Source: a virus. From it: DNA of 25,541 nt. This document shows positions 3,836-25,061 of this stretch, piece by piece; position 1 is the stretch's first letter, and the number at the start of each line of letters is the position of its first letter. The position numbers and the translations under genes were made by a program. The notes beneath the pieces are model-generated. The model was not told the origin of the DNA and made no database searches. It saw only the letters and a program-made list of their open reading frames with translations. Location: IMG/VR virus record IMGVR_UViG_3300034020_000076, positions 1-25,541 of that record; one strand, given 5' to 3'.

Positions 3836-3843
3836 TATTTATT
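3836..3843 (-). promoter_or_regulatory. Late promoter AATAAATA, 4 nt before the gp16-like ATG
   Basis: AATAAATA on the minus strand overlaps the TAA stop of the gp4-like gene. Its last A is only 4 nt from the next ATG, so a transcript started here would be leaderless. No ribosome site is visible for the downstream gene. Confidence 0.5.
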
Positions 3844-4276
3844 TGCGTTTGCCCTTGTAGAACAAATCATCTTCAGTAACTACTCTAAATGTACAACCTA
3901 TCCTTTTACAATAGGCCATAGCAGCCGCCCATTTTGCATGATTCAATGCTACCGTGACTCTTTCTCTTGCACTAGCCACTCTGCTCTCAATGAGACTTTG
4001 TTTTTTGGGTTTTATCTCTACTATCTCTGCTCGTTGATGACCTAATCTATCTTGGTATAAAACAAAAAAGTCAGGTATATAAACAGTCTGTTTACCCGTC
4101 AGTGGATTCCTGTAGGGTATTTGTATAGATTCACTAGCCCACTGTAATACGCTATCGTGGTTATCACAAAACATCATAAATGTTAATTCCCAACCTGAAC
4201 GATATTTAGGCACTGTTTTGCCTACGTATTTGTGTTTGTTCTTTACTTGGTATTTACCTTGTGCGTAATTAGCCAT
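3839..4276 (-). CDS. 4: Head completion protein, T4 gp4-like TnsA-type nuclease fold, 145 aa
   Basis: T4 gp4 acts after DNA packaging, preparing filled heads for tail joining. The sequence has the TnsA-like PD-(D/E)XK pattern: YRSGWE with Glu30, a WASE...IPY strand pair (residues 46-55), YIPDF with Asp69, and EIVEIKP with Glu87 and Lys89. All catalytic positions are present, so nuclease activity is plausible. The length (145 aa) is close to T4 gp4 (about 150 aa). The N-terminus is basic (KYQVKNKHKYVGK). Its ATG lies one nucleotide after the TGA of the 121-aa gene, so translation is probably coupled. It is followed by the gp16-like small terminase. Confidence 0.85.
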   Translation of the reverse strand: MANYAQGKYQVKNKHKYVGKTVPKYRSGWELTFMMFCDNHDSVLQWASESIQIPYRNPLTGKQTVYIPDFFVLYQDRLGHQRAEIVEIKPKKQSLIESRVASARERVTVALNHAKWAAAMAYCKRIGCTFRVVTEDDLFYKGKRK

Positions 4277-4277
4277 G

Positions 4278-4643
4278 TCATAAAACTACGTTACGTGCCA
4301 CTGGTTGTACAGGTCTGGGTATAGTTGCTACCCCATAAAGGCTTGTTTTTGATTTAAAACTATTTAGGTAGTATGCGAGATATTGATTTACTTCTAGTTT
4401 ATTTTTAGTTGTGCCTTTAATATTTTCTAATAATGTTATTGCGTTTATGCCTGATTCTTGTGATACTCTAAAAAAGAATGCTGTAAAATTTTGTGCTATT
4501 GATTCTGTCTCGCATACACTTTTAAAATAACTTAATACTATATCATATTCATTTGTAGGTACTGTGACAGCGACATTGTAAAAATTATCAAAAATCTTTA
4601 CTGTCCTGTCAATGCTTTCGGTTTGTGTTACTATTAATGCCAT
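4278..4643 (-). CDS. Conserved T4-like phage protein of unknown function, 121 aa
   Basis: The function is not recognised. The protein is compact and mainly helical, beginning MALIVTQTESIDRTVKIFDN. Its C-terminal half carries YLNSFKSKTSLYG followed by a proline-rich tail. From memory, similar proteins occur beside tail-tube-like proteins and gp4 in T4-like aquatic phages. There is no Shine-Dalgarno: the late element AATAAATA, which overlaps the stop of the 405-aa gene, ends 4 nt before the ATG. It precedes gp4 by one nucleotide. A structural or assembly role is suggested only by position. Confidence 0.85.
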   Translation of the reverse strand: MALIVTQTESIDRTVKIFDNFYNVAVTVPTNEYDIVLSYFKSVCETESIAQNFTAFFFRVSQESGINAITLLENIKGTTKNKLEVNQYLAYYLNSFKSKTSLYGVATIPRPVQPVARNVVL

Positions 4644-4646
4644 GTC

Positions 4647-5864
4647 TTATTTATTATTGTAAGTAGTTCTTACTTGAACTCCTGCATTAGAGACAGGAGT
4701 TACAGGGTTCGGAGTAGGAGGATTGCTGATAGTAGGTGCACCGGCAGTGCCTACTGTATAAGGAGTGACTGATTTATTAGGAATGTCGAATAATATATTT
4801 CTATTTTTACTGATAGGGCTACCGAACTGCCATGCTGCCTGTGCTACCATGTTTTCGAGTTCTGCTTTTGCTGTTTGTTTCAAGTTGATATTTTTAAACG
4901 TATTATATGCTGTGCCTGCTGTACGTAGTGCGCCTAAAATATTACCATCGCTGAAACTTTTAACTGCGCCACCGGCTGCATCAACTAATCCACCTTGACC
5001 TAATATGCTACCATTGGCTCCTGGCATCATGATAGGACTTGGTTTTCTATCGTATGTTGCTGGATCACCAAAACCTGTAACTATATCGCCGGGTGCTCTA
5101 CCGTCAATAGCACCTTCATTGTAAACTACAGTTTCATAATCTACTGTCATTTGATTTTGCATGACTCCTGCACCATCAGCATAACTGTATGTGTCATGTG
5201 CAAAGTTAGTTATAATAGGGTTTATTAAAGTATAAGCAGTGAATGCATGTTGATTGAAACCAAACACTGTAATGTTCTTAAAGAAAGGAACCTTGTGTCC
5301 AAATTTTGGAGTAGCGGTCTCGCCGATATAACCCCAATTATCATTTCCGCTTATGCTATCGTCATAGATATTTGTTATATTATAATCTGCGTTAGTAGTT
5401 TGTGCAGAACTGCTATTATCATTATTAGGTGGTATCGCGCCTCGCTTACCTAAAAATACAGTAGGTTTAGTTGCATCTGCATAATAATACGTATAATAAT
5501 TATACCACATTCTATTGATGAGGTTGTCATTATCATCATGAAAACTTATGTTTACAGGGTCGTATTTTATTTTAGTCTGTACGATACGTTTACGATTATA
5601 TTGATTGAGTTGTATTGTGTTAAAACCATACGAGGGAAGTTTTACATCTTTAACTAATAAACCTATATTTTTATCTACTGAATCTGGCCACGCTTCGACA
5701 TTGATGTTAAAGTAGGTATGAAATATGAATTTATATTTAGGAGCGTTTTGATAACTATTAGTCCTAAATGTTTTTGCGGCGTGCCTATAGTCTCTAAGGT
5801 AATCGCTGCCGAAGACTGCTCCGGCAGCGCCTTTAAGTAGGTCTTGAATAAATCCAACCTGCAC
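4647..5864 (-). CDS. Tail-tube-like virion protein (gp19/gp54 superfamily candidate), 405 aa
   Basis: This is probably a tube-fold protein at the tube-baseplate junction. Residues ~40-125 and 190-245 show the alternating strands of contractile-tail tube proteins: a membrane-free N-terminus (RDYRHAAKTFRTN), a LPSYGF turn, NQYNRKRIVQTKIKYDPV, SFHDDNDNLINRMWYNYY, and later MTVDYETVVYNEG. The C-terminal ~150 residues are Gly/Ala/Pro-rich and probably extended. It lies directly after the tail tube gene. The start is GTG at 5862-5864, since no ATG is close and AGGG lies 7 nt upstream. That ribosome site is inside a hairpin (5873-5889). A T4 gp54-like tube initiator role is inference; it could instead be a second tube-associated protein. 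Confidence 0.8.
   Translation of the reverse strand: MQVGFIQDLLKGAAGAVFGSDYLRDYRHAAKTFRTNSYQNAPKYKFIFHTYFNINVEAWPDSVDKNIGLLVKDVKLPSYGFNTIQLNQYNRKRIVQTKIKYDPVNISFHDDNDNLINRMWYNYYTYYYADATKPTVFLGKRGAIPPNNDNSSSAQTTNADYNITNIYDDSISGNDNWGYIGETATPKFGHKVPFFKNITVFGFNQHAFTAYTLINPIITNFAHDTYSYADGAGVMQNQMTVDYETVVYNEGAIDGRAPGDIVTGFGDPATYDRKPSPIMMPGANGSILGQGGLVDAAGGAVKSFSDGNILGALRTAGTAYNTFKNINLKQTAKAELENMVAQAAWQFGSPISKNRNILFDIPNKSVTPYTVGTAGAPTISNPPTPNPVTPVSNAGVQVRTTYNNK
4648..4655 (-). promoter_or_regulatory. Late promoter AATAAATA, 4 nt before the ATG of the 121-aa gene
   Basis: AATAAATA on the minus strand spans the last codons and stop of the preceding gene. It has the same 4-nt spacing to the ATG as the gp16-like gene. 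Confidence 0.5.
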
Positions 5865-5872
5865 CAGGAGAC

Positions 5873-5889
5873 CCTAACTATTAGTTAGG
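5873..5889 (-). promoter_or_regulatory. Hairpin covering stop of tail tube and ribosome site of next gene
   Basis: A perfect 7-bp inverted repeat (CCTAACT-ATT-AGTTAGG) contains the TAA of the tail tube gene and most of the AGGG that serves the GTG start of the next gene. Ribosomes ending on the tube gene would open it, which could couple and limit translation of the downstream gene. Confidence 0.5.
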
Positions 5890-6517
5890 CGCCAAGGCCT
5901 GTTACTGAATCGCCAGTCAAGATTCTTCCGATACTTGCACCAACGCCAGAAGCGAGTGGTGATTGTATTGCGTTGTCATAACGTAATGTCAATGCTATCG
6001 TTACAGCCTCGTTAGTACCATAGTTCAATGTATTGTAGTTTACAGTCTGTACAAAGCAACCATATAGTTCCCATGTTTCTAAGACTACTGGTGCACTAGT
6101 ACCGTTACCACCATCTAATATTTCGATGTTAGTCTGGAACTTATAGTCTTGACCAGTTGCCGCAGATGCTTGCTCTACGAAATCTAATTGCTTTTGAACT
6201 TGTTGTCCAACTGCTCTTGAAACTGTACCTGATGCATCATCACGAACGTTTACTGTGATAGGCTGCCATGCATACTTACCAGCAAGATACAATGTTGAGT
6301 TGTAAACTGGAATTGTGATTTCTTGGAACTGTATCTGGGGTCTTGCCACGTCAATAACTTGCTTAGTTAACGCTAGACCGCCGGCCGCATCGACGCCAAA
6401 GTTCAAGAAATTAACTCTGAAGCGATATTGTAGTTTTGGCATCAACAGGCCCTGATTGCCTCCGGCATTATCAGATGCGACTGTCATGTTAAACAATGAT
6501 TGTGAGGCTGTTGCCAT
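5885..6517 (-). CDS. 19: Tail tube protein gp19, 210 aa
   Basis: Polymerises into the inner tail tube through which DNA is injected. The sequence has the tube-protein pattern: YRFRVNFLNFG (residues ~31-41), a run of short strands including FQEITIPVYNSTLYLAGKY, WQPITVNVRDDASG (the 'D-D' strand common to tube proteins), a central helix QQVQKQLDFVEQ, and C-terminal strands TWELYGCFV...NYNTLNYG...VTIALTLRYDNA. It is somewhat longer than T4 gp19 (163 aa). It lies immediately downstream of the sheath gene, as in T4 gp18-gp19. The start is well supported by AGGAG 8 nt before the ATG and a late promoter 23 nt upstream, so strong late expression is expected. Confidence 0.92.
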   Translation of the reverse strand: MATASQSLFNMTVASDNAGGNQGLLMPKLQYRFRVNFLNFGVDAAGGLALTKQVIDVARPQIQFQEITIPVYNSTLYLAGKYAWQPITVNVRDDASGTVSRAVGQQVQKQLDFVEQASAATGQDYKFQTNIEILDGGNGTSAPVVLETWELYGCFVQTVNYNTLNYGTNEAVTIALTLRYDNAIQSPLASGVGASIGRILTGDSVTGLGA

Positions 6518-6540
6518 TTGTAAATTCTCCTACTTTATAG

Positions 6541-6548
6541 TATTTATC
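6541..6548 (-). promoter_or_regulatory. Late promoter GATAAATA of the tail tube gene
   Basis: GATAAATA on the minus strand lies 23 nt before the ATG, with AGGAG in between. It gives the tube gene its own late promoter, separate from the sheath. Confidence 0.75.
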
Positions 6549-6554
6549 ATAAGT

Positions 6555-6579
6555 GAGAGAGCCTCTTAGAGACTCTCTC
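6555..6579 (+). terminator. Stem-loop between sheath and tube genes, terminator-like on the plus strand
   Basis: A 7-bp stem (GAGAGAG / CTCTCTC, 11-nt loop) is followed on the plus strand by a T-rich run at 6582-6589. On the minus strand, where the genes are, there is no T-run after it. It may stop antisense transcription or mark an mRNA 3' end. Confidence 0.45.
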
Positions 6580-6590
6580 TATCTTTTTTA

Positions 6591-10154: not shown

Positions 10155-10183
10155 TTTTTTGTTTCCTATAATGTTATATTTTG

Positions 10184-10211: not shown

Positions 10212-10219
10212 TATTTAGT
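10212..10219 (-). promoter_or_regulatory. Late promoter ACTAAATA of the sheath gene
   Basis: ACTAAATA on the minus strand, 57 nt before the sheath ATG, matches six of eight positions of TATAAATA. The same variant is used on the plus strand before the gp14-like gene. Confidence 0.5.
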
Positions 10220-10225: not shown

Positions 10226-10315
10226 ATGAAAAAACCAAGGACTAAGAGACCTTCGAAGGTTTTAGATAAATATCAATATGGGATTACTAAGACCTATCTG
10301 CAATCAATGCAATAA
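10226..10315 (+). CDS. Possible small basic protein, 29 aa
   Basis: An ATG at 10226 opens a 29-codon frame ending in TAA at 10313-10315. The product begins MKKPRTKRPSKVLDKYQYG and is strongly basic. It overlaps the start of the zinc/HNH-like gene by 38 nt in another frame, and the late element GATAAATA lies within it. No strong ribosome site is visible (AGGT directly abuts the ATG). Lys/Arg-rich small proteins of this kind occur in T4-like phages, but I cannot confirm this one. It could be chance, or a short upstream reading frame coupled to the next gene. Confidence 0.35.
   Translation: MKKPRTKRPSKVLDKYQYGITKTYLQSMQ
10265..10272 (+). promoter_or_regulatory. Late promoter GATAAATA, 5 nt before the ATG of the zinc/HNH-like gene
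   Basis: By analogy with T4 late promoters, where the element spans about -13 to -6, transcription would begin at the A of the ATG at 10278. No Shine-Dalgarno is present. Confidence 0.55.
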
Positions 10316-10631
10316 GAACCCTAGAGCCGTTAATTATATTCGTGACGGTGTGAAACACTACCGCAGTATATGTGATGAGTGCGGTAAAAAGAAGAATAAA
10401 GTAAAGACAAGACCTAGCAACTGGGTCAAAGCAGGTTATAAAAAGAAGCAAGTTTGTGATATCTGCGGCTTTAAATGCATATATCATACTCAGATGACCG
10501 TGTTCCACATAGACGGAGACCTCAGAAATACTGCGTTTAGTAATCTGAGGTCTATCTGTTTGAACTGTATCGAGGTCGTTAAACGACAAAAAGTTACATG
10601 GAAGCGCGGTGACTTACAAGTTGACTATTGA
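10278..10631 (+). CDS. Zinc-binding HNH-like protein, 117 aa
   Basis: A small basic protein with two cysteine-pair clusters. Cys8/Cys11 with Cys32/Cys35 would form one zinc ribbon; Cys60/Cys63 with Cys94/Cys97 a second. Between the latter pairs is FHIDGDLRNTAFSNL with His77, Asn84 and Asn89, the shape of a treble-clef HNH nuclease core. The usual final His after the last CxxC is missing (Cys97 is followed by Ile), so it may be a degenerate nuclease or a DNA-binding protein. From memory it is a conserved T4-like cyanophage hypothetical. It is on the plus strand, opposite its neighbours, and overlaps the 3' end of the dNMP kinase gene by 18 nt tail to tail. Confidence 0.88.
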   Translation: MGLLRPICNQCNKNPRAVNYIRDGVKHYRSICDECGKKKNKVKTRPSNWVKAGYKKKQVCDICGFKCIYHTQMTVFHIDGDLRNTAFSNLRSICLNCIEVVKRQKVTWKRGDLQVDY

Positions 10632-13266: not shown

Positions 13267-13274
13267 TATTTATC
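13267..13274 (-). promoter_or_regulatory. Late promoter GATAAATA before the gp13-like gene
   Basis: GATAAATA on the minus strand lies 22 nt before the ATG, in the gap after the MazG-like gene. It starts the neck/glycosyltransferase operon. Confidence 0.75.
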
Positions 13275-13920: not shown

Positions 13921-15053
13921 TAGAATGCCTTTAGGATAATCATGTTTTCATTGAATCGACCGTTAGGTGTAGTCGATACAGCCTTGATGTCTTTGAAGTA
14001 CTTACGTGCCGCGGGCTTACTTCCCATGACTTCTTTGATTTGCACTTCGGGCTTACGTAGTGTCTTAGTCTCAGAATTCTTAGTGCAGAACCCGATAACA
14101 CTGTTACCTTTGACAGTCAAACTCTTGCCATATTCATCAGCAACTAAGTGAATCAACTTACGCTTCTTAGTATCATAGACCCAAGCCTCAGCACAACCAT
14201 GCAACTTTGTAGATGGTACACTGACCAACTCAAGTTTCTCAAGTTTGAATGTCTTGAGATACTTGAGGCTACGCACAATCTTTTCGATCGGCACTGCTTT
14301 CTTAGCACGTGGCTTTCGCCCTGCCTTTTTAATATTGACGTATGAATTGAGGTCAGAGATAACCTTCTCAATCACGCCGATTATGTTGCGAACCTGTACC
14401 TTACCTAAATGTGAATATGCTTCGTTCAACTGCTCATCTTTACCTGCTTGCAACTCGGTATACTCATCCAGTTTACGTTGCCAAGCACTAGTCAAAATAT
14501 TGATATGTTGCGGCAACACATTGTATTGTGTCAACACACTGACCGGATTGATGTTGCTTTCTTTCTTGCAACCACCTAGAATATATTCATCCCACTGCCC
14601 CTCAAGTTCTCCACCTGCTTCTAGAGCCTTCTCACGCATACGCTCTTGAATGTTCGGCTTGATGACCACAGTAGTAGTTACCTGTTCTGCTACTACCTCT
14701 TCCTTATCTTCCGTCAACAAACGTTCGATTTCTGAGGACAGTTTATTGATCGTATTCTCATCGTTGTATCCGCGCAACACGCATCGTGCCACGAATCCAT
14801 AAGTAGTAGTCACATTGCTATCGCTTACACGGCGAAATGCTTTTGCTTCAGTAATCTTGCCTGTAAAGTCAAGATATTGGGCAATAAATTCTTTAGCATC
14901 CTTCTTATCGTAGAAGTGATGATACCATGTTAGTGCTTCACCCAAACTATGTTTAGCGTTTTCTACACTAAAATCGGGTTCGGGTCCAAAATACTTAGCG
15001 TCTGCATCCCTGGGATTCAAGGGCTTGATTTCATGCGTTTTAGTCTTGACCAT
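13920..15053 (-). CDS. Conserved phage protein of unknown function, 377 aa
   Basis: The function is not recognised. The protein begins MVKTKTHEIKPLNPRDADAK and has a helical N-terminal half (WYHHFYDKKDAKEFIAQYLDF), a charged middle, a Lys/Arg-rich linker (KKAGRKPRAKKAVP near residue 250) and a small C-terminal beta-rich domain (AWVYDTKKRKLIHLVA...SLTVKGNSVIGF). This composition suggests nucleic-acid contact, but that is inference. I chose the ATG at 15051-15053 because GGAG lies 6 nt upstream; the longer frame up to 15113 would start inside the promoter. The operon continues into the 64-aa gene and MazG. From memory, similar proteins are conserved unknowns in T4-like aquatic phages. Confidence 0.88.
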   Translation of the reverse strand: MVKTKTHEIKPLNPRDADAKYFGPEPDFSVENAKHSLGEALTWYHHFYDKKDAKEFIAQYLDFTGKITEAKAFRRVSDSNVTTTYGFVARCVLRGYNDENTINKLSSEIERLLTEDKEEVVAEQVTTTVVIKPNIQERMREKALEAGGELEGQWDEYILGGCKKESNINPVSVLTQYNVLPQHINILTSAWQRKLDEYTELQAGKDEQLNEAYSHLGKVQVRNIIGVIEKVISDLNSYVNIKKAGRKPRAKKAVPIEKIVRSLKYLKTFKLEKLELVSVPSTKLHGCAEAWVYDTKKRKLIHLVADEYGKSLTVKGNSVIGFCTKNSETKTLRKPEVQIKEVMGSKPAARKYFKDIKAVSTTPNGRFNENMIILKAF

Positions 15054-15084
15054 AGTAGTCTCCAATGCTATTATCAATTTACTT

Positions 15085-15113
15085 ATTCTATCACCCTGTC
15101 TGATAAAAGTCAA
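15085..15113 (-). promoter_or_regulatory. Sigma70-like promoter of the 377-aa/64-aa/MazG operon (TTGACT-17-TAGAAT)
   Basis: On the minus strand, -35 TTGACT at 15108-15113 is 17 nt from -10 TAGAAT at 15085-15090. The ATG is 31 nt past the -10, with a GGAG ribosome site. A short inverted repeat TATCA-N7-TGATA (15089-15105) overlaps the spacer. Confidence 0.75.
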
Positions 15114-15141
15114 GCCCTTTGTAAGTCATTGATTCTAAACG

Positions 15142-15149
15142 ACTAAATA
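15142..15149 (+). promoter_or_regulatory. Late promoter ACTAAATA, 4 nt before the gp14-like ATG
   Basis: ACTAAATA on the plus strand, divergent from the sigma70-like promoter at 15085-15113. The downstream gene has no visible Shine-Dalgarno, so its mRNA should be leaderless. Confidence 0.5.
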
Positions 15150-15153
15150 CTGT

Positions 15154-16875
15154 ATGCCCAAATTATCGCTATATCACCCAACGAAAACTAACGATTATAA
15201 ATTCTTCGACAGGACGATTTCGGAGCAACTTACTGTGGGTGGAACTGACCTTTATATCCACAAATATATGGGCCCGTCTGCACAGACACCAAGTGCAGAC
15301 TACACTCAACCGCAGTATGTCAGTCCTGATCCTACACAGATACAAGACTTATTGTTCTTAGAAAACCGCGATAGGGTTTATGATCCAAATATCTATAGAT
15401 TGCGTGGACATTATAGCGTACAGAATCTAGACTTTGATTTAAGTCAGTTTGGATTATTCTTAAACAATGACATCATCTTTATTGCCGTTCATTATAACGA
15501 CATGATCGATATCATTGGTCGTAAACTAATGGTAGGTGACGTATTAGAATTACCTCACTTACTAGATTACAACCCATTAAAAGAATCAATACCGGTAGCA
15601 TTGAAGCGTTTCTATAGCATCACCGATGCTAACTTTGCTAGCGAAGGTTTCAGTCAAACTTGGTATCCACACTTATGGCGTATCAAGTGTGAGCCATTAG
15701 TAGATAGTGAAGAATTTAGCAATATACTCAAAGAGCCAATCAACAAAGACAATTATCTTGGTGATTGGGATCCTACTAAAGTATATCCGCCTGGTTATGT
15801 AATAAGTTATGGTGACAAGAACTACATCAGTAAGATAGAAGTTCCTGTAGGAATATATCCCCCAAATGAAACATATTGGGAATTAGATCCTAATCAGAAT
15901 CTCAAAGATATCTTATCAACATATAACAAGAATCTTGATGTTAATAATGCGCAACTTGAAGAAGCAAAACGTATAGTACCTAAAGCAGGTTACAACAACA
16001 AAGACCTATATGTCGTTCCAACATATGGAATATATGAAAGCAACAACACATTATCAGGCAAACTGAATCAGCCGGCGCCACCTATCAATGTTGTGACATA
16101 TAGTGGTGGAGCACCTAACACAGGTTCTTATGGTACTGTAGTCTACATGCGCAATCCTAAATATAAGAATCCTAGCGCAGGTATCAAAGTCAGTAAAGAA
16201 TTATTGAAGAGCATATGGGATATGACTGCTGACATGGATTTCACTAAGATGGATATCCATGTACAAACAAATATGGAAGTCATGGAAAGTGCTCCTGCAG
16301 TCCTCAAAGAAGGTAGTGGTTCAAGATCGCTAGAAGGTAATAAAGTATTATCTGTCATGTCACTTGGTCCAGTTACTGGTCCATATGGTACTGCTGACAA
16401 TACATATGCTACTGCTGACGCAGATCCAACTCAACCAGGATTTACTGGTACTATCAGTACACAAATGGATTGGCGTGCAGACTGCGATCCTGCATATCAG
16501 TATATCAGTCGCGCAAGTCCAAGAAGTTTCGGTTATGAAGCAGGTTATCTATCAGGAGATGGTACTGCCCCTAACGGTTATCCAAGTGGCGCAGGCATTG
16601 CGTTCCCGCAAAATCCTCAAGTAGGTGATTACTTCTTGCGCATCGATTATATGCCGCAGATATTATATCGTTGGGACGGAAAATTGTGGATTCGTATATC
16701 AACTAATGTACGTACAGACACTGGATTCACAGCGGACGACCAAGCACAGAAGTCTCAATTCATCAATAATGAAGCAGAGATATATAACAACAATACAGGT
16801 AACTTGATACCATCAGCACAACCATTATCAAGTATCTTACAATTAGCACCGAACAACTTACCCCCATTACCATAA
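15154..16875 (+). CDS. 14: Neck protein, gp14-like, 573 aa
   Basis: Probably part of the neck joining head to tail. Residues ~20-190 match the pattern I recall for T4-like cyanophage gp14: TISEQLTVGGTDLYIHKYMGP, IQDLLFLENRDRVYDPNIYRLRGHY, DFDLSQFGLFLNNDIIF, MVGDVLELPHL and WYPHLWRIKCEPLVDS. It is much longer than T4 gp14 (256 aa). Added parts include a segment near residues 202-247 (WDPTKVYPPGYVISYGDKNY...YWEL) resembling a chitin/carbohydrate-binding module (CBM5/12 style) and a C-terminal 'GDYFLRIDYMPQILYRWDGKLW' module near 490-515 similar to one in the sheath. The gp15 gene follows by 9 nt. There is no Shine-Dalgarno. Confidence 0.75.
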   Translation: MPKLSLYHPTKTNDYKFFDRTISEQLTVGGTDLYIHKYMGPSAQTPSADYTQPQYVSPDPTQIQDLLFLENRDRVYDPNIYRLRGHYSVQNLDFDLSQFGLFLNNDIIFIAVHYNDMIDIIGRKLMVGDVLELPHLLDYNPLKESIPVALKRFYSITDANFASEGFSQTWYPHLWRIKCEPLVDSEEFSNILKEPINKDNYLGDWDPTKVYPPGYVISYGDKNYISKIEVPVGIYPPNETYWELDPNQNLKDILSTYNKNLDVNNAQLEEAKRIVPKAGYNNKDLYVVPTYGIYESNNTLSGKLNQPAPPINVVTYSGGAPNTGSYGTVVYMRNPKYKNPSAGIKVSKELLKSIWDMTADMDFTKMDIHVQTNMEVMESAPAVLKEGSGSRSLEGNKVLSVMSLGPVTGPYGTADNTYATADADPTQPGFTGTISTQMDWRADCDPAYQYISRASPRSFGYEAGYLSGDGTAPNGYPSGAGIAFPQNPQVGDYFLRIDYMPQILYRWDGKLWIRISTNVRTDTGFTADDQAQKSQFINNEAEIYNNNTGNLIPSAQPLSSILQLAPNNLPPLP

Positions 16876-18261: not shown

Positions 18262-18279
18262 GCAATAGAGTGTTATACT
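18251..18279 (+). promoter_or_regulatory. Sigma70-like promoter of the Nudix gene (TTGTAA-17-TATACT)
   Basis: -35 TTGTAA at 18251-18256 and -10 TATACT at 18274-18279 are 17 nt apart. The -10 ends 6 nt before the ATG at 18286, so the expected start of transcription is the A of the start codon. The -35 is inside the last codons of gp15. Confidence 0.65.
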
Positions 18280-18285: not shown

Positions 18286-18702
18286 ATGAAAAACACTTCG
18301 GCAGGTTTATTCTTTTACAGTAAAAATACGGGTAGATTCTTATATCTATTGCGTAATGATGCCAATCATAGTTGGGGCGTGCCGGGCGGTAAGGTAGAAG
18401 AAGATGAAACGTTGTTTGAAGGATTAGAACGCGAATGTGTAGAAGAGATTGGACATTTTCCAAAAGATGCCAAATTGATTCCTATACAGAAATTTGTCAA
18501 TAAGACTTTCACTTATCACACATTTTTCTGTTCAGTAGATGATGAGTTCATTCCTGTATTGAATGATGAGCATATCGGCTATGCTTGGGTAGGTGAGAAT
18601 CAACATCCTAAACCAATGCATCCCGGATTGTTTAGCACAATCAATATTGATATTGTGAAAGAAAAATTAAAAAATCTTACTGAAAATAAAAACGGGGCTT
18701 AA
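18286..18702 (+). CDS. Nudix hydrolase, 138 aa
   Basis: Hydrolyses a nucleoside diphosphate linked to another group; the substrate is unknown. The Nudix box Gx5Ex7REUxEExGU is present at residues 35-57: Gly35, Glu41, Arg49-Glu50, Glu53-Glu54, Gly56. Position 57 is His rather than the usual hydrophobic residue. The N-terminal strand (AGLFFYSKNTGRFLYLLRN) and WGVPGGK loop are standard. It could sanitise oxidised dNTPs, act on mRNA caps, or cleave NAD-type or alarmone compounds. It has its own sigma70-like promoter and no ribosome site, unlike the gp15 gene before it. A bidirectional terminator overlaps its stop codon. Confidence 0.92.
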   Translation: MKNTSAGLFFYSKNTGRFLYLLRNDANHSWGVPGGKVEEDETLFEGLERECVEEIGHFPKDAKLIPIQKFVNKTFTYHTFFCSVDDEFIPVLNDEHIGYAWVGENQHPKPMHPGLFSTINIDIVKEKLKNLTENKNGA

Positions 18703-18713: not shown

Positions 18714-18734
18714 ACTGAGATGAATCATCTCTCA

Positions 18735-19052: not shown

Positions 19053-19058
19053 GATTTA

Positions 19059-20042
19059 TTAAGCCTTATTAATAGTTACGATAGGATAAGGTTGTCCACC
19101 GTATGTATTAGCGGCATATGCAGTATTGAATGTCGAGAACGCAGGACTTGAATTGTTGATATTTGCTGTCTCATTAGGTAGAGCAGTAACACCCGAATTG
19201 GCAGTGAACAACTCAGCAGTATGATCGCTCAATGATTGAACATATACTGTTGATGTGTTTGCATATGTACCTTGGATATTGAAAGTATTTGGCAACAATG
19301 CTGTGTTTGCTACGTTTGCAGTATAGCAAGCGGCAGTCAAACCACTAGTTGAACCAGTGACTAGATACTTCTGCTTACCTTTCTGACGAACGATGAAACC
19401 TGCTTCTGGATTACCATAGATATATGCACCATCAGTTACGTTTGCTGTAGCATTGGCTGCAAATGTTGCGAATACAGCATTTGCATTTGCGATATCATCA
19501 ATAGTACCAAGAATCACACCTGCGTCTGTGTACACGATTGTACCATCAGTCAATGTGTTTGCAAAGTCAGTACCGACACCATCTAAGTTTGGACTGTCGT
19601 CTGCACAAGTTATTGTGCCTTCACCAGTGATACCGATACATACACCAACTAATACTTGGTTACCATATAGTGCTGTGTTACCACCGACTACTGAATATGT
19701 GTTTGCTGAACCATCTGGGTTGTTGAAATATGCATCTACTAAACCAACTGTTGCTGACACTGTAACAGGGCCCGCACCCGATAAATTAACCGGTGTGTAT
19801 GTTGGATTTGCTGATAATTCTGTTGCTGATACTGTGAAAGTAGTTGCTGACAATATTTGCAGTATCCAGTAAGTTGTACCTGCAACTAAGCCACCGATAT
19901 TGCTTGCTGGAATGAATGGCATACCTGCAATGATACCTAGATTAGTTAAGTTTGATGATGTAGTGACTACTTCTGTTGAGGCATTAGTAGCAGTTAAAAC
20001 TATGACTGCTTGAGCCTTTGCGATTTTTAATGGACGTCCCAT
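19059..20042 (-). CDS. Virion surface or fibre-like protein, 327 aa
   Basis: The function is not known in detail. The protein begins MGRPLKIAKAQAVIVLTATN and is beta-rich, dominated by Thr, Ala, Asn and Gly, with few charged residues, as in phage decoration or fibre proteins. It carries a GGLVAGTTYWIL segment (shared with the 427-aa fibre protein) and a DGVGTDFANTLTDGTIV...DDIANANAVFATF module (residues ~153-195) that also occurs in the 174-aa neighbour. A FIVRQKGKQKYLVTG strand pair is near residue 215. The start is supported by AGGAG 8 nt upstream and a late promoter 80 nt away with a structured leader. A structural role is inferred from composition and late promoter. Confidence 0.85.
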   Translation of the reverse strand: MGRPLKIAKAQAVIVLTATNASTEVVTTSSNLTNLGIIAGMPFIPASNIGGLVAGTTYWILQILSATTFTVSATELSANPTYTPVNLSGAGPVTVSATVGLVDAYFNNPDGSANTYSVVGGNTALYGNQVLVGVCIGITGEGTITCADDSPNLDGVGTDFANTLTDGTIVYTDAGVILGTIDDIANANAVFATFAANATANVTDGAYIYGNPEAGFIVRQKGKQKYLVTGSTSGLTAACYTANVANTALLPNTFNIQGTYANTSTVYVQSLSDHTAELFTANSGVTALPNETANINNSSPAFSTFNTAYAANTYGGQPYPIVTINKA

Positions 20043-20079
20043 TTGTTTTCTCCTGTTGATTGCGAGTTCTAGTCGCTAC

Positions 20080-20114
20080 GCAGTGGGTACTGCATAAACT
20101 CTCACTATGAGAGT
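20080..20114 (-). promoter_or_regulatory. Structured leader of the 327-aa gene (two hairpins)
   Basis: The first hairpin is ACTCTCA-TAG-TGAGAGT (20098-20114, 7 bp), starting about 3 nt after the predicted transcript start. The second is GCAGT-ACCC-ACTGC (20080-20093). Both precede the AGGAG site. Confidence 0.5.
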
Positions 20115-20122
20115 GTACAAAC

Positions 20123-20130
20123 TATTTATC
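20123..20130 (-). promoter_or_regulatory. Late promoter GATAAATA of the 327-aa gene
   Basis: GATAAATA on the minus strand, 80 nt before the ATG, the longest late leader in the window. Confidence 0.7.
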
Positions 20131-20144
20131 TTTTTTGCGTAATT

Positions 20145-20669: not shown

Positions 20670-20687
20670 TTTCGTTATCCTATTTTG

Positions 20688-20695
20688 TATTTATT
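20688..20695 (-). promoter_or_regulatory. Late promoter AATAAATA of the 174-aa gene
   Basis: AATAAATA on the minus strand, 18 nt before the ATG with AGGA between. It lies just past the stop of the 427-aa fibre gene. Confidence 0.7.
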
Positions 20696-20696
20696 T

Positions 20697-21980: not shown

Positions 21981-22008
21981 AGTTGTACATGTACCAAGTA
22001 GTACAACT
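21981..22008 (-). repeat. Inverted repeat abutting the fibre gene ATG
   Basis: Arms AGTTGTAC and GTACAACT (8 bp, perfect, 12-nt centre) lie immediately upstream of the ATG and touch the late promoter. The predicted transcript start (~22002) lies in the upstream arm, so it may act as DNA (protein site) rather than as a full RNA hairpin. Confidence 0.5.
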
Positions 22009-22015
22009 ATTTATG
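22008..22015 (-). promoter_or_regulatory. Late promoter CATAAATA of the fibre gene
   Basis: CATAAATA on the minus strand, 27 nt before the ATG, overlapping by one base the inverted repeat at 21981-22008. Confidence 0.65.
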
Positions 22016-22023
22016 CTATTATG

Positions 22024-22713
22024 TTACAAGAACTGCGTATAATATTTGTCTAGTCTAGTATACCATAGATCAGTATACTTGTCAAAATCAGCACCCTCTA
22101 TTATGAATTCTTGATATTCATTTGCGGCTGAACACATGAAAATAACGCCCTTACGTATTTTAGTGCCCCAGACTTCATTGTGTGCTGTTGCATAGGCCGC
22201 AGTCTGCACAAAATAGTCTTCGATCCACTCACGCTTCTTGGGCTTGTTCGTCTGCTTGTGGTCCATTATCGCTTCTTGACCACCATGGACACCTACTAAG
22301 TCTGTGGTCCCTGCATAAACTTCAGGAAAGTATAAAGATACTTCCGTGCCCCAGAACTCGGTGCAGTTGGATAGTCCTTTAGATATGATTGAATGTGCCA
22401 TCTGATGGCTTTGGATACTGTATGGATTGCTACCGGGCTCACCTGTGACTCCTGTCTTTACATAGTTCTCAAGCCACTTGTGCATTCGTGTTCCACGACC
22501 AGCGGCTTCAGTAGTGATCTGTTGAGCCTTCTCAGGTCCAACACGCTTGCGCCACTCATGTAACGCTTTCTTGCTCTCTTCAGATTTTGTAGCATCTAAG
22601 ATAGTTGTCACGCTAGGAACAGCATGACCATCGGGAGTCATATATTTTCTTGAGCCGTTAATGGTCTCGCGTTTTAACTCTTTATATGGGAATTTATCAG
22701 GTGTATAAATCAA
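22024..22713 (-). CDS. PD-(D/E)XK exonuclease, MGME1/RecB-like, 229 aa
   Basis: A predicted DNA exonuclease for phage replication, recombination or host DNA breakdown. Motifs are in order: GRGTRMHKWLE (His78), GTEVSLYFPEVYAGTTDLVG (Glu124, Asp138), IMDHKQTN (Asp151, Lys153) and QTAAY (Gln170...Tyr174), the RecB/Cas4/MGME1 pattern. Only two cysteines are present (117 and ~194), so it should lack the Fe-S cluster of Cas4 or AddB. The start is TTG at 22711-22713, which overlaps the TGA of iscA (TTGA); the next ATG (Met25) would remove a conserved-looking N-terminus. A GGAGAGAG run lies about 12 nt upstream. It is coupled to iscA and shares its sigma70-like promoter. Confidence 0.88.
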   Translation of the reverse strand: MIYTPDKFPYKELKRETINGSRKYMTPDGHAVPSVTTILDATKSEESKKALHEWRKRVGPEKAQQITTEAAGRGTRMHKWLENYVKTGVTGEPGSNPYSIQSHQMAHSIISKGLSNCTEFWGTEVSLYFPEVYAGTTDLVGVHGGQEAIMDHKQTNKPKKREWIEDYFVQTAAYATAHNEVWGTKIRKGVIFMCSAANEYQEFIIEGADFDKYTDLWYTRLDKYYTQFL

Positions 22714-23030
22714 ACTCTAAAACTCTCTCCGCATCCACAGCGGTCTTTTTCATTAGGGTTGATGAATTCAAAGCCTTCATTCAACCCTTGTCTTTTATAG
22801 TCTATGGTCATTCCTGTTAGATAAACAAATGATTTTGGATCGATAAACACTTTAAATTCTTCATAATCAATAACATGATCATGTTCAACGTGGTTATCCA
22901 CAAACTCTAATACGTAAGCAAGTCCAGAACATCCTGTAGTCTTGACACCAATTTTGATGCCTAGACCTTGACCACGTTTATTGAGATGGTGTTTAATTTT
23001 TGTTTTTGCTATCTCAGTCAAAACAATCAT
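22710..23030 (-). CDS. iscA: A-type iron-sulfur cluster carrier (IscA/ErpA/HesB family), 106 aa
   Basis: Carries and delivers Fe-S clusters to apoproteins. The three conserved cysteines are present at Cys34 (TTGCSGLAY) and Cys98/Cys100 (CGCGESF), matching the usual Cys35, Cys99 and Cys101 of IscA. The length (106 aa) is standard. The fold strands (GIKIGVKTTGCSGLAYVLEFVD; FKVFIDPKSFVYLTGMTIDY) are complete, so it should be functional. HesB/IscA-like genes occur in some marine phages, where they are treated as auxiliary metabolic genes. The sigma70-like -10 TATAAT ends 8 nt before the ATG and no ribosome site is visible, so the mRNA is probably leaderless or nearly so. The exonuclease gene overlaps its stop. 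Confidence 0.95.
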   Translation of the reverse strand: MIVLTEIAKTKIKHHLNKRGQGLGIKIGVKTTGCSGLAYVLEFVDNHVEHDHVIDYEEFKVFIDPKSFVYLTGMTIDYKRQGLNEGFEFINPNEKDRCGCGESFRV

Positions 23031-23036
23031 TTGTAT

Positions 23037-23064
23037 ATTATACTTGATAAAAAGTTAATTACAA
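23037..23064 (-). promoter_or_regulatory. Sigma70-like promoter of iscA-exonuclease (TTGTAA-16-TATAAT)
   Basis: On the minus strand, -35 TTGTAA at 23059-23064 and a perfect -10 TATAAT at 23037-23042, in the 35-nt gap after the 112-aa gene. The -10 is 8 nt from the ATG. Confidence 0.75.
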
Positions 23065-23065
23065 G

Positions 23066-23404
23066 TTATTTGGTCATTGCTGACTTAGCCATCTTTGCGA
23101 CGACTTCTTTACTTTGCTCAGGAGGAGGGGCTTCGGCTTGTGCTGGTTGTTGTGGCTCTAAGCCTTTGAATACTACTGTGTCACCTTCTATGTTACTCAC
23201 TACATTTTTTAGTGGTTTATTTTGAATCATAGAATATAGATCGTTAGTTGAAAAAGTAAGATCAAACTTCCTAAAATAGGTCAATAGTTTATCTACTGTC
23301 CAGTTGTCTGTAATCTGCTGGTTTTCCAATGCGGTTTTAAGTTGATCGGTAGCGGCGATCAACTTAACTAACTTCGGATCATTGACGAATTCATAGAGGT
23401 ACAT
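23066..23404 (-). CDS. Conserved phage protein of unknown function, 112 aa
   Basis: The function is not recognised. It is a small, mainly helical N-terminal domain (MYLYEFVNDPKLVKLIAATDQL...WTVDKLLTYFRKFDLTF) followed by a short strand region (VVSNIEGDTVVFKG) and a Pro/Gln/Glu-rich tail that is probably disordered. Its ATG lies one nucleotide after the TAA of the scaffold-like gene, so the two are translationally coupled and late. A partner or accessory role with the scaffold-like protein is inference from this coupling. The next gene, iscA, has its own promoter. Confidence 0.83.
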   Translation of the reverse strand: MYLYEFVNDPKLVKLIAATDQLKTALENQQITDNWTVDKLLTYFRKFDLTFSTNDLYSMIQNKPLKNVVSNIEGDTVVFKGLEPQQPAQAEAPPPEQSKEVVAKMAKSAMTK

Positions 23405-23405
23405 T

Positions 23406-24110
23406 TTACCTCAACTCGCGACCAACTCCGCCTGCTGGTTCTGTTTCTGGTTCTTCTTCTGGTGCAATCTCTGCATCCATTTCAGCACCGGCAACTTCTT
23501 CACCGCCGGGGGTAGATGTAGCCGCAACGTCAGTAACAGCCATTTCTTCACCGCCTGTTGGAGGTGCACCTAATGCTTCAGGGCTACCAACACCAGTCAA
23601 TGCATTCATAGCATTTTGCATTTCAGATTTGCTCTGACTCAATGTTTGATTCAATGTAGTTAACGCGGTGCTTGCTGCCTGATTGAATGCACCTGATTCG
23701 TTGACACCGATCTCTGATTGAATGCTGTCTGTCAATGCAGGTAGTTCTTTGACTAACATATCATTGACTTCTTCAATCATTTTCTGAAGGCTGTCGAGCA
23801 TATCTTGTGCTGCCAAGATAACCTGTGATTTTTCTACCTGCTCGTTTTCAACAACGATTCTAGCAGATTTAGTATTTTTATAATGCTCTGTCAATGCTTG
23901 AGCCATGAATACTAATTTCATGTATGAAGGATGCGTGTGGTTCTTGTAGAAATCAGGACTTGATTTTGCTTCCTTGATCAGTCCAACTACCTTCTCTAGC
24001 ATAGTTTTAGCCTGTGCGCGATTCAGTCTTGATGTATCAAAACTGAAACCGAAGTTGGCCTTAAGAGCCTGTGACGCTGTGTGTGTTTTGTCTAGTTCGT
24101 TGAGTCTCAT
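23406..24110 (-). CDS. Helical scaffold/prohead-core-like protein, 234 aa
   Basis: The protein is helical with an acidic, Ala/Pro/Gly/Glu-rich tail (residues ~180-234). The core segment VEKSQVILAAQDMLDSLQKMIEEVNDML followed by ELPALTDSIQSEIG (residues ~92-135) resembles, from memory, conserved proteins in T4-like aquatic phages sometimes labelled prohead core. Heptad-like spacing and the acidic tail suit an internal head scaffold. It has its own late promoter 24 nt upstream and a GGGA ribosome site 8 nt before the ATG, and is followed by the 112-aa gene after one nucleotide. The scaffold label is tentative; it could be another virion-interior protein. Confidence 0.8.
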   Translation of the reverse strand: MRLNELDKTHTASQALKANFGFSFDTSRLNRAQAKTMLEKVVGLIKEAKSSPDFYKNHTHPSYMKLVFMAQALTEHYKNTKSARIVVENEQVEKSQVILAAQDMLDSLQKMIEEVNDMLVKELPALTDSIQSEIGVNESGAFNQAASTALTTLNQTLSQSKSEMQNAMNALTGVGSPEALGAPPTGGEEMAVTDVAATSTPGGEEVAGAEMDAEIAPEEEPETEPAGGVGRELR

Positions 24111-24134
24111 GGTTAATTCCCATATTAATAGATA

Positions 24135-24142
24135 TATTTATC
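24135..24142 (-). promoter_or_regulatory. Late promoter GATAAATA of the scaffold-like gene
   Basis: GATAAATA on the minus strand, 24 nt before the ATG, with GGGA between. Confidence 0.7.
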
Positions 24143-24147
24143 AGTAA

Positions 24148-24618
24148 TCAATACTTTTCGTCTTGATATTCCTGATACTTTTTAGTCTGCAAATGCATAG
24201 AAAGTGAGGTGTAGCCCTGAATCTCTTTTAACGCATTTTTTCTCCTGAGTTTTTCCTCTTCTAGTTTTGCTAGATAAATGAACTTATCAGGAATTTCCCT
24301 TTTATTCATCAATTTTTTATGCTGTGCTATAGCGACATCTAATGCCCCTATAATCTGGTCTAATTCTCTTAGTCTTTTTGTCTCTTTACATTTCTTATTC
24401 TTCTCAAATACGCAATGAGTCACTGCATATTTAAGGCTAGAAAACTCATATTCAGGGGCATACGGATCATTGATAGTTACTATCTTAAATATTCCGTCCT
24501 CTTTAGGAACAATGATATATGTTCCAAACAGGTTATAACTCCCGTCATACTCCTTGACGATAAAGATATCCTTTATCTTTTTGGCTAGATAAGACTTATT
24601 CATATTCATATTTAACAA
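24148..24618 (-). CDS. Conserved phage protein of unknown function, 156 aa
   Basis: The function is not recognised. The N-terminal half is strand-rich (IKDIFIVKEYDGSYNLFGTYIIV...KIVTINDPYAPEYEF), the C-terminal half a long charged helix region (LRELDQIIGALDVAIAQHKKLM...LAKLEEEKLRRKNAL). Start choice is uncertain: a TTG at 24616-24618 has AAGGA 9 nt upstream, while in-frame ATGs at 24607-24609 and 24601-24603 have no well-placed ribosome site. I kept the TTG. All versions overlap the end of the previous gene, so coupling is likely. Composition suggests a small assembly or regulatory protein, but nothing specific. Confidence 0.82.
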   Translation of the reverse strand: MLNMNMNKSYLAKKIKDIFIVKEYDGSYNLFGTYIIVPKEDGIFKIVTINDPYAPEYEFSSLKYAVTHCVFEKNKKCKETKRLRELDQIIGALDVAIAQHKKLMNKREIPDKFIYLAKLEEEKLRRKNALKEIQGYTSLSMHLQTKKYQEYQDEKY

Positions 24619-25048
24619 AATAAATGTTCCTTTTTTCCAAAGTTATATCTAACCTATCTCCTGTATTGTGCCATTGACTATCACATTGAATCATAGGTAC
24701 TTCTGAACAGTCTTTATATAAAGACCCTAGATCACTGACCCCATCTTCAAATACACTTTGATGTTGCACCTCAAACACGAATTTCCATACAGGAACAGTT
24801 TTCTTATCTGTAAGCATAGTACCGAAATAATGCTCCTTACTAAAGTCTATTTCTAACCGTATAGGATCTTCAATGATATCGGGCTGTGCGCGTAATGATA
24901 TGACTTGCAATATAGTATCGAAATTGCATTGTGTGTTACGTTTTCTATACCATGCATTTGTATCTGTTATATCATCACCCGGTCTAGCACGATTCAATAC
25001 TCCTGTCTTTGTGATATCGAATAGTGTGTAGCAGGTAATCCTGTGCAT
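24596..25048 (-). CDS. Conserved T4-like phage protein of unknown function, 150 aa
   Basis: The function is not recognised. The protein begins MHRITCYTLFDITKTGVLNR and continues with RNTQCNFDTILQVISLRAQP and VPVWKFVFEVQHQSVFEDGVSDLGSLYKDC; the latter segments are, from memory, a conserved small family in T4-like aquatic phages. It is a mixed alpha/beta globular protein with four cysteines that are not in zinc-ribbon spacing. No ribosome site precedes the ATG; the late-type element CTTAAATA ends 5 nt upstream. It follows directly after the terminator at 25064-25092, so it should start its own transcript. It overlaps the next gene. Confidence 0.85.
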   Translation of the reverse strand: MHRITCYTLFDITKTGVLNRARPGDDITDTNAWYRKRNTQCNFDTILQVISLRAQPDIIEDPIRLEIDFSKEHYFGTMLTDKKTVPVWKFVFEVQHQSVFEDGVSDLGSLYKDCSEVPMIQCDSQWHNTGDRLDITLEKRNIYFVKYEYE

Positions 25049-25053
25049 GTCTT

Positions 25054-25061
25054 TATTTAAG
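25054..25061 (-). promoter_or_regulatory. Late-type promoter CTTAAATA, 5 nt before the ATG of the 150-aa gene
   Basis: CTTAAATA on the minus strand matches six of eight positions of TATAAATA. It sits between a strong terminator and an ATG without a ribosome site, which supports promoter function and a leaderless mRNA. Confidence 0.5.

What the first reader, a model, noticed from the sequence alone, without database searches (positions are those of the whole stretch)
3836..25061. Seven genes with promoters set for leaderless mRNA
Seen in sequence: in five genes the late element ends 4 or 5 nt before the ATG (gp16-like at 3836-3843, 121-aa at 4648-4655, zinc/HNH-like at 10265-10272, gp14-like at 15142-15149, 150-aa at 25054-25061). 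In two more, a sigma70-type -10 ends 6 or 8 nt before the ATG (Nudix 18274-18279, iscA 23037-23042). None of the seven shows a Shine-Dalgarno. The other nine late elements lie 18-27, 57 or 80 nt away, and all but the fibre gene show a ribosome site. The spacing is bimodal, which is unlikely by chance. T4 late transcripts start about 6 nt past the element, so starts would fall at or within one base of the ATG. A leaderless class mixed with a leadered class in one T4-like phage would be unusual and could be a translation-timing system.
Basis: partly seen in the sequence, partly recalled or inferred. Interest (0 to 1): 0.72.

Follow-up and report, generated by a model that had tools for sequence, protein, structure and literature searches.

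The report
Leaderless late genes in T4-type phages
Some late genes of this aquatic T4-type virus of bacteria have their promoter so close to the start codon that the messenger RNA should begin at the first codon itself, a layout kept across many relatives but not found in T4, which points to a second, unusual way of starting protein synthesis within one virus.

Summary
Five of 30 gene starts have a T4-type late element ending 4-5 nt before the ATG; 2000 shuffles gave at most 3. In relatives the spacing is kept while the spacer varies: gp14-like gene 50 of 51 distinct upstream regions, HNH 29 of 30, 160-aa gene 40 of 54 (13 others are leadered), 150-aa gene 4 of 5. Over 935 upstream regions spacing is bimodal: 135 at 4-6 nt, 12 at 7-15, 273 at 16-30. 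Short-class starts are all ATG and lack a strict Shine-Dalgarno motif (135 of 135). T4's element lies at -13 to -6 (PMC1524935), so +1 falls on the A of ATG. The class is absent from T4, Syn9, RaK2 and 400 kb of Atu_ph07, but numbers 17-32 in three large relatives and 12 in pelagiphage HTVC008M, where it is conserved too. The 121-aa gene (7 of 40) and the iscA-like sigma70 case (7 of 57, no better than a control gene) are weak. No transcript end was measured; the timing role is untested. I judge it a widespread leaderless late class in aquatic T4-type phages.

The parts
3836..3843 (-). late element AATAAATA, 4 nt before ATG of the 160-aa gene; overlaps the stop codon of the gp4-like gene
   Evidence: 40 of 54 distinct orthologous upstream regions short, 13 at 20-22 nt, 1 without
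3349..3831 (-).
   Evidence: codon position 2 conserved from the ATG on
4648..4655 (-). late element AATAAATA, 4 nt before ATG of the 121-aa gene; overlaps the stop codon of the tube-like gene before it
   Evidence: weakly conserved, 7 of 40 short
4278..4643 (-). 121-aa gene, no PHROGs or Pfam match
10265..10272 (+). late element GATAAATA, 5 nt before ATG of the HNH gene
   Evidence: 29 of 30 distinct upstream regions short
10278..10631 (+). HNH / zinc protein gene, divergent from the tail sheath gene
   Evidence: Pfam HNH 21.1 bits, just under its 21.4 cut-off; PHROGs HNH endonuclease, E 0.00025
15142..15149 (+). late element ACTAAATA, 4 nt before ATG of the gp14-like gene, in a divergent intergenic region
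   Evidence: 50 of 51 distinct upstream regions short
15154..16875 (+). gp14-like virion structural gene (phrog_11591)
   Evidence: start codon supported
25054..25061 (-). late element CTTAAATA, 5 nt before ATG of the 150-aa gene, just after a hairpin plus T run
   Evidence: 4 of 5 distinct upstream regions; short in the 6 G genomes compared, down to 45% identity
24596..25048 (-). 150-aa gene, no PHROGs match
18274..18279 (+). sigma70-type -10 TATACT, 6 nt before ATG of the Nudix gene
   Evidence: TATAVT at 5-9 nt in 25 of 39 distinct upstream regions, sham motif 2 of 39
18286..18702 (+). Nudix hydrolase gene
   Evidence: phrog_1198
23037..23042 (-). sigma70-type -10 TATAAT, 6 nt before ATG of the iscA-like gene
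   Evidence: 7 of 57 distinct upstream regions, no better than the gp4-like gene (7 of 67)
113..120 (-). leadered late element GATAAATA, 23 nt from ATG (comparison class)
3343..3350 (-). leadered late element GATAAATA, 22 nt from ATG
6541..6548 (-). leadered late element of the tail tube gene, 23 nt, AGGAG
10212..10219 (-). leadered late element ACTAAATA of the tail sheath gene, 57 nt
13267..13274 (-). leadered late element of the head-tail adaptor gene, 22 nt
20123..20130 (-). late element with an 80-nt structured leader (freshwater-2 RNA, 20040-20114)
20688..20695 (-). leadered late element, 18 nt
22008..22015 (-). leadered late element of the fibre gene, 27 nt
24135..24142 (-). leadered late element, 24 nt

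Best explanation
The short-spaced elements are genuine T4-type (gp55-dependent) late promoters placed so that transcription starts on, or within one base of, the A of the start codon. These late genes are therefore made as leaderless mRNAs, which ribosomes take up through the 5'-terminal AUG without a Shine-Dalgarno. They coexist with a leadered class (element about 16-30 nt away, ribosome site usual) in the same phage. Shown: the elements, the spacing and its conservation, the missing Shine-Dalgarno, correct start codons, and a gp55-type sigma in the larger relatives. From established knowledge: T4 late transcripts start 6 nt past the element. Inferred: that this phage's polymerase does the same; that ribosomes start on the 5' AUG; and that the class tends to serve low-copy virion proteins and enzymes while the most abundant proteins keep strong ribosome sites.
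For: (1) TAAATA before 935 distinct start regions: 135 at 4-6 nt (41, 89, 5), 12 at 7-15, 273 at 16-30.
(2) Spacing is kept while the spacer varies: gp14-like 50 of 51 short with 20 distinct spacers, HNH 29 of 30 with 23; after thinning to upstream regions under 60% identical 11 of 12 and 10 of 11.
(3) T4 TATAAATA lies at -13 to -6 (PMC1524935, passage): a 5-nt spacer puts +1 on the A of ATG.
(4) Short class: ATG 135 of 135; strict Shine-Dalgarno motif 0 of 135 (a looser set in 7%, against 87% of the long class); anti-SD pairing -0.23 against -0.28 for shuffles; long class -4.87 against -2.01. Base before ATG is T or C in 93% (long 61%, no element 54%).
(5) In the leadered class a pyrimidine-purine step at positions 5/6 after the element is in excess: 113 against 60 expected of 267; 32 against 16 of 107 in six G genomes.
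(6) Codon conservation begins at the ATG.
(7) Of 31 divergently transcribed short genes in seven relatives, 23 show no other late element on their strand within the gap (up to 150 nt).
(8) T4 0 of 238 starts, Syn9 0 of 171, RaK2 0 of 501, Atu_ph07 0 of 601 (400 of 490 kb), PA5oct 1 of 372; relatives G006 32 of 387, G009 20 of 284, G008 17 of 314; HTVC008M 12 of 174. In relatives of HTVC008M gp48 12 of 12 and gp4 18 of 23 distinct upstream regions are short.
Against: No 5' end was measured, and the host is unknown. With 4-nt spacing the canonical start would fall on the T of ATG, so the polymerase must choose one base earlier. The window has a sigma70-like match on the gp14 strand (15046-15074, 10 of 12) that could give a leader of about 72 nt; but 3 of 43 regions have one and such matches are not above chance there (18 found, 18.8 expected). 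The 121-aa case is short in 7 of 40. 66 of the 97 short genes in relatives follow a same-strand gene and could also be read on longer transcripts. Genome-wide the contrasts are softer: T or C before ATG 89% short against 80% long in six G genomes; strict Shine-Dalgarno motif in about 2 of 80 short genes there and 2 of 12 in HTVC008M; in T4 the 5/6 step is common (10 of 20) but not above what the columns predict. Raw pattern counts without gene starts exceed the reversed control only about twofold in relatives (G006 38 against 19, G009 33 against 11, G008 25 against 18), and T4 (6 against 2) and Atu_ph07 (10 against 5) do so too, though not at called gene starts. P-SSM2 has 4 at exactly 5 nt, but the base before TAAATA is T in 2 of them, so these are doubtful.
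Confidence: 0.8

Rival explanations
1. The genes are read on longer, leadered transcripts that start further upstream, from sigma70 promoters or from the operon, and are translated without a Shine-Dalgarno or by coupling; the near element adds little.
For: 66 of 97 short genes in seven relatives follow a same-strand gene with a median gap of 21.5 nt; a sigma70-like match lies upstream of the gp14-like gene in the window; the neighbouring gp4-like gene has neither late element within 40 nt nor strict Shine-Dalgarno motif in 67 of 67 distinct upstream regions.
Against: It does not explain the exact 4-6 nt spacing or the near-empty 7-15 nt gap. 23 of 31 divergent short genes show no other late element on their strand within the gap (sigma70 promoters were not sought there). 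The upstream sigma70 match of the gp14-like gene is found in 3 of 43 regions.
Confidence: 0.1
2. The element near the ATG is not a promoter but an A/T-rich translation signal (unstructured or S1-binding region).
For: It is A/T-rich and sits where a ribosome binds; genes with it lack a Shine-Dalgarno.
Against: The [AC]TAAATA of the leadered promoters is kept, not general A/T richness: of eight other A/T hexamers plotted, the commonest at 4-6 nt is ATAAAT, which is the same element read one base out of register. SD-less genes such as the gp4-like one do not carry it. Some orthologues have the same motif at 20-22 nt and a ribosome site more often.
Confidence: 0.05
3. Gene-junction artefact: a TAA stop codon followed closely by an ATG makes AATAAATA by chance.
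For: True of the geometry at 3836 and 4648, where the element overlaps the stop codon of the gene before.
Against: The gp14-like and HNH elements lie in divergent regions with no stop codon involved and are the best conserved. T4, RaK2, Syn9 and 400 kb of Atu_ph07 also have many gene junctions and show no such class.
Confidence: 0.03
4. The true start codons lie further downstream, so the mRNAs are leadered after all.
For: None found.
Against: In the gp14-like, HNH and 160-aa families second codon positions change least and third positions most over codons 2-12. HTVC008M annotated starts agree at the 11 of 12 short genes looked up.
Confidence: 0.02

Closest known systems
Bacteriophage T4 late promoters (gp55/gp33/gp45 system)
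   Same: Same 8-bp -10-like element, no -35 element (PMC2988020, passages); a gp55-type sigma (phrog_12791) is found in 8 of 14 IMG/VR relatives searched
   Different: In T4 none of 238 starts has the element at 4-6 nt and 23 occurrences lie at 16-28 nt; here a second, leaderless spacing class exists
Leaderless phage mRNAs of E. coli (lambda cI; phage P2 late genes)
   Same: No leader and no Shine-Dalgarno; of mobile-element origin (lambda, P2, Tn1721 named in a passage of PMC4633059)
   Different: Those are few genes with other promoter types (recalled); here a whole class of T4-type late genes is positioned this way and conserved
Leaderless transcripts of mycobacteria and other bacteria
   Same: Genome-wide mixture of leaderless and leadered mRNAs; only AUG or GUG works as a leaderless start (PMC4633059, passage)
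   Different: Bacterial, host-type promoters (recalled); not tied to one phase of a phage cycle
T4 RNA structures that block translation of early read-through mRNA (genes e, soc, 49, I-TevI)
   Same: A late promoter close to the gene decides which transcripts are well translated (PMC3014915, passages)
   Different: T4 does it by sequestering a Shine-Dalgarno or AUG in a helix that the late start removes; here there is no Shine-Dalgarno to sequester

Membership tests
T4-type late promoter | TATAAATA-like octamer (core [AC]TAAATA here) at the -10 position | tested here: met
   A or C before TAAATA in most short and long elements of the relatives; position relative to +1 is inferred
T4-type late promoter | phage encodes a gp55-type sigma factor | tested here: met
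   phrog_12791 in 8 of 14 IMG/VR relatives searched (G006-G009, G011-G014), not in 6 others of 51-171 kb (G001-G004, G010, G015); the window itself is a 25.5-kb record and none of its proteins scanned matched such a sigma
T4-type late promoter | transcription starts 6 nt past the element | tested here: inconclusive
   sequence only: YR excess at 5/6 in the leadered class of the relatives, none above column expectation in T4; no 5' ends available
Leaderless mRNA | transcript 5' end at or within a few nt of the start codon | not testable with these tools
   predicted from element spacing and the T4 start position (PMC1524935)
Leaderless mRNA | AUG (or GUG) start codon | tested here: met
   135 of 135 short-class starts are ATG
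Leaderless mRNA | no Shine-Dalgarno | tested here: met
   strict motif 0 of 135, looser set 7%; pairing energy equal to shuffles; genome-wide about 2 of 80
Leaderless mRNA | start codon used in vivo without a leader | not testable with these tools
   needs 5'-end mapping plus ribosome profiling or reporters

The most novel reading that the evidence does not exclude
Aquatic T4-type phages (large-genome relatives of this window, and pelagiphages) run two translation modes within one late-transcription programme. Abundant proteins (capsid, sheath, tube) use mRNAs with strong ribosome sites. Many low-copy parts and enzymes (portal, terminase, neck, baseplate, tape measure, HNH) use leaderless mRNAs made only by the late polymerase, so dose and timing are set by where the transcript begins. 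The class may have arisen more than once, since it was not found in T4, Syn9, RaK2 or 400 kb of Atu_ph07.
Probability: 0.3. Interest if true: 0.82.

Novelty: new variant of a known kind. Interest (0 to 1): 0.67.

Why it matters
T4 late transcription is a textbook system in which late genes carry leaders with Shine-Dalgarno sites. A conserved leaderless class in uncultured aquatic relatives and in the isolated pelagiphage HTVC008M would show that the same promoter is used in two ways, and would raise the question of how ribosomes in an infected cell are shared between them. It also matters practically: start-codon and promoter prediction that filters by distance or demands a ribosome site will misplace or discard these promoters. 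HTVC008M has a named host strain (Candidatus Pelagibacter ubique HTCC1062), so one 5'-end mapping experiment would decide.

Tried and rejected
bS21 as the cause: I tested whether phage-encoded ribosomal protein S21 tracks the class. It does not: PF01165 matches in 8 of 24 records, among them PA5oct and Atu_ph07, which have one and no short-spaced starts, while G009, which has 20, has no match. Rejected.

Host: two genome-contig scans (gp14-like, gp4-like) gave no close relative; only three distant gp4 matches (34-38%) in metagenome bins. Host unknown.

Close named phages: megablast of bases 1-25000 against 50,697 phage records gave 4 records, each with the same 112-base mazG match. The nearest isolates by protein include large-genome phages (Atu_ph07, Phosso, PA5oct, SCTP-2) at about 35-50% identity.

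P-SSM2: 4 short hits, all at 5 nt, but the flanking base does not fit the promoter in 2 of them; left as doubtful.

The iscA-like sigma70 box: 7 of 57 upstream regions, no better than the gp4-like gene (7 of 67); I do not count it as supported.

A separate promoter type for the short class: in the family data G mostly stands two bases before TAAATA in the long class and A in the short class. Genome by genome the difference is smaller and the [AC]TAAATA core is shared; I take it to be driven by a few families, but a real sub-type is not excluded.

Print: no description found in searches of the held open-access library; subscription journals are mostly missing. PMC9004378 excluded promoters by position relative to ORFs, and its single 'leaderless' is a reference title (passages). 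Most other papers listed in those searches were not opened, PMC7892664 and PMC9516812 among them.


Full report
What the window is. It is a 25,541-base IMG/VR virus record with a T4-type structural region: gp4-like head closure (phrog_218), two tube proteins, a large tail sheath, a head-tail adaptor, a gp14-like structural protein, a gp15-like sheath stabilizer, plus HNH, dNMP kinase, MazG, Nudix, exonuclease and an iscA-like gene. There is no close named phage in the collection searched. The nearest isolates by protein include large-genome phages (Atu_ph07, Phosso, PA5oct, SCTP-2).

Observation. Five of 30 gene starts carry [ATC]TAAATA at 4-6 nt; 2000 dinucleotide shuffles gave at most 3. Two of the five overlap the stop codon of the previous gene. 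The nine leadered elements lie 18-27, 57 and 80 nt away.

Relatives. Window proteins were placed on them by tblastn, and the position of residue 1 gave the start; matches beginning after residue 4 or too near a contig end were left out. Rows with no start codon at that position were dropped before counting (for example HNH 22 of 70, 150-aa 36 of 56), and identical 60-nt upstream regions were merged, leaving 935. TAAATA distances: 4 nt 41, 5 nt 89, 6 nt 5, 7 nt 0, 8-9 nt 10, 10-15 nt 2, 16-30 nt 273. The ten copies at 8-9 nt are those of doubled TAAATAAATA in the 160-aa family, whose nearer copy is at 4-5.

Per family: gp14-like 50 of 51 short; HNH 29 of 30; 160-aa 40 of 54, with 13 at 20-22 nt and 1 without; 150-aa 4 of 5; 121-aa 7 of 40. 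The iscA-like gene has a late element at 5 nt in 5 of 57. After thinning to upstream regions under 60% identical: gp14-like 11 of 12, HNH 10 of 11, 160-aa 10 of 16. The 150-aa and HNH genes are short in all six G genomes compared, down to 45% and 63% identity; G003 is almost identical to the window and G001 and G004 to each other in this region, so these are about four independent cases. The gp14-like gene is leadered in G006 and G009. So the two classes interconvert in evolution, with almost no intermediate spacings.

Properties of the short class (n=135): ATG in all; no strict Shine-Dalgarno motif (a looser set in 7%, against 87% of the long class); anti-Shine-Dalgarno pairing -0.23 against -0.28 for shuffles. 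The leadered class (n=267) has -4.87 against -2.01, and 10 GTG/TTG starts. The base before ATG is T or C in 93% of the short class, 61% of the leadered, 54% of those without an element. Genome-wide in six G genomes the same figures are 89%, 80% and 48%, and the strict motif occurs in about 2 of 80 short genes; in HTVC008M in 2 of 12. Over codons 2-12 second positions change least and third positions most. Twenty spacers in 50 gp14-like genes, 23 in 29 HNH genes and 23 in 40 160-aa genes show that length, not sequence, is held.

Where transcription should start. In T4, TATAAATA lies between -13 and -6 (PMC1524935, passage); PMC2988020 (passages) places the box about one helical turn before the start. 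A 5-nt spacer puts +1 on the A of ATG; 4 and 6 nt are one base off. In the leadered class a pyrimidine-purine step at positions 5/6 after the element is in excess: 113 against 60 expected of 267 (6/7 is next, 104 against 79), and 32 against 16 of 107 in six G genomes. In T4 this step is common (10 of 20) but not above column expectation. Larger relatives encode a gp55-type sigma: 8 of 14 IMG/VR relatives searched, not 6 others of 51-171 kb.

Transcription units. The gp14-like gene is divergent from a gene with its own sigma70-type promoter on the other strand, matched in 38 of 43 regions (window included, relatives of at least 75% identity). A sigma70-like match on the gp14 strand is found in 3 of 43; the alignment shows it in the window and two near-identical sequences. 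In seven relatives, 31 of 97 short genes are divergent from their neighbour, and 23 of those 31 show no other late element on their strand within the gap, up to 150 nt.

Distribution (TAAATA at 4-6 nt before the first ATG of genes called by my own simple ORF caller): T4 0 of 238, Syn9 0 of 171, RaK2 0 of 501, Atu_ph07 0 of 601 (400 of 490 kb), PA5oct 1 of 372, P-SSM2 4 of 250 (220 of 252 kb, doubtful). Relatives: G006 32 of 387, G009 20 of 284, G008 17 of 314 (300 of 303 kb), G002 9 of 98, G001 8 of 118, G004 6 of 84, G003 5 of 65. Pelagibacter phage HTVC008M 12 of 174, eleven of them at exactly 5 nt; annotated starts agree at the 11 genes looked up. Counting the raw pattern anywhere gives a weaker contrast: about twice the reversed control in relatives, and T4 6 against 2, RaK2 5 against 10, Aeh1 0 against 0 at 5 nt. 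Forty-four loci related to HTVC008M gp4 give gp48 12 of 12 distinct upstream regions at 5 nt down to 40% identity, gp4 18 of 23 at 5-6 nt, gp2 11 of 21 at 5, 6 or 8 nt; 6, 2 and 2 rows respectively had no usable start. G005, G007, G010-G015, Aeh1 and Phosso were not counted at gene starts.

The sigma70 pair. A TATAVT box at 5-9 nt before the Nudix ATG is found in 25 of 39 distinct upstream regions (sham motif 2 of 39). For the iscA-like gene it is 7 of 57, no better than the gp4-like gene (7 of 67); the gp15-like gene has 0 of 56. The Nudix case fits a near-leaderless start from a host-type promoter; the iscA-like case is open.

Function. In G006 and G009 the portal gene is short, and terminase large subunit is short in G002, G006 and G009 (not in G001). 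In HTVC008M the 11 short genes looked up are annotated as DNA end protector, head closure, tail completion, baseplate tail tube cap, a baseplate wedge subunit, a baseplate wedge initiator, tape measure, 2OG-Fe(II) oxygenase, CsgF, a cyclase and a transcriptional regulator. Major head protein (G006, G009), sheath and tube keep ribosome sites in the relatives and in HTVC008M, though the head and tube genes of HTVC008M show no late element within 90 nt. This suggests low-dose expression of low-copy parts, but there are exceptions: the prohead protease and other baseplate genes of HTVC008M are leadered. Leaderless starts would also stop translation from read-through transcripts, as T4 does with RNA structures (PMC3014915, passages); that is inference. 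Phage bS21 does not track the class.

Known or new. Leaderless mRNAs are known from lambda, P2 and Tn1721 and widely in mycobacteria (PMC4633059, passages). I found no report of a leaderless class among T4-type late genes in searches. PMC5312081 (passages) says that phage transcripts are often leaderless but finds leaders of 26 nt or more in AR9. PMC9723584 and PMC13282480 were seen in passages only, which do not describe it. I rate it a new variant of a known kind.

Noticed in passing
window 20040-20114 (-): Rfam freshwater-2 RNA (RF02980, 69.9 bits, cut-off 49.9) fills almost the whole 80-nt leader between late element 20123-20130 and the ATG of the 327-aa gene, which also fits a start about 6 nt past the element.
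   Followed up: partly
window 10249-10260 (+) and HNH upstream regions of relatives: Palindrome ACCTTCGAAGGT lies a few bases before the HNH late element; CCTTC[GA]AAGG is present in 29 of 30 distinct HNH upstream regions, 2-10 nt before TAAATA. It sits between the divergent sheath and HNH promoters: possible operator.
   Followed up: partly
window 15122-15134 (+) and gp14-like upstream regions: A block like TAAGTCATTGATT, kept in many relatives, stands between the late element of the gp14-like gene and the -35 of the divergent sigma70 promoter; in the window the only other match has 2 mismatches and is at chance level. Unexplained.
   Followed up: partly
window 15085-15113 (-): Sigma70-type promoter TTGACT-17-TAGAAT for the 376-aa gene; a similar match in 38 of 43 regions, window included: an early-type promoter back to back with a late one.
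   Followed up: partly
window 3839-4276 (-) and relatives: The gp4-like gene has neither strict Shine-Dalgarno motif nor late element within 40 nt in 67 of 67 distinct upstream regions; probably coupled to the gene before.
   Followed up: no
HTVC008M 59714 and 109429 (NC_020484): Two genes (one annotated head-tail adaptor; one of 372 aa) have the late element at 8 nt, a possible 2-3 nt leader.
   Followed up: no
160-aa gene orthologues such as L118, L145, L159: In several leadered orthologues the leader reads about TACTATTATAGGATAGTA, an inverted repeat with AGGA near the loop.
   Followed up: no
records G006, G007, G008, G010, HTVC008M, PA5oct, Atu_ph07, Phosso: Phage-encoded ribosomal protein bS21 (PF01165) in 8 of 24 records searched.
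   Followed up: yes
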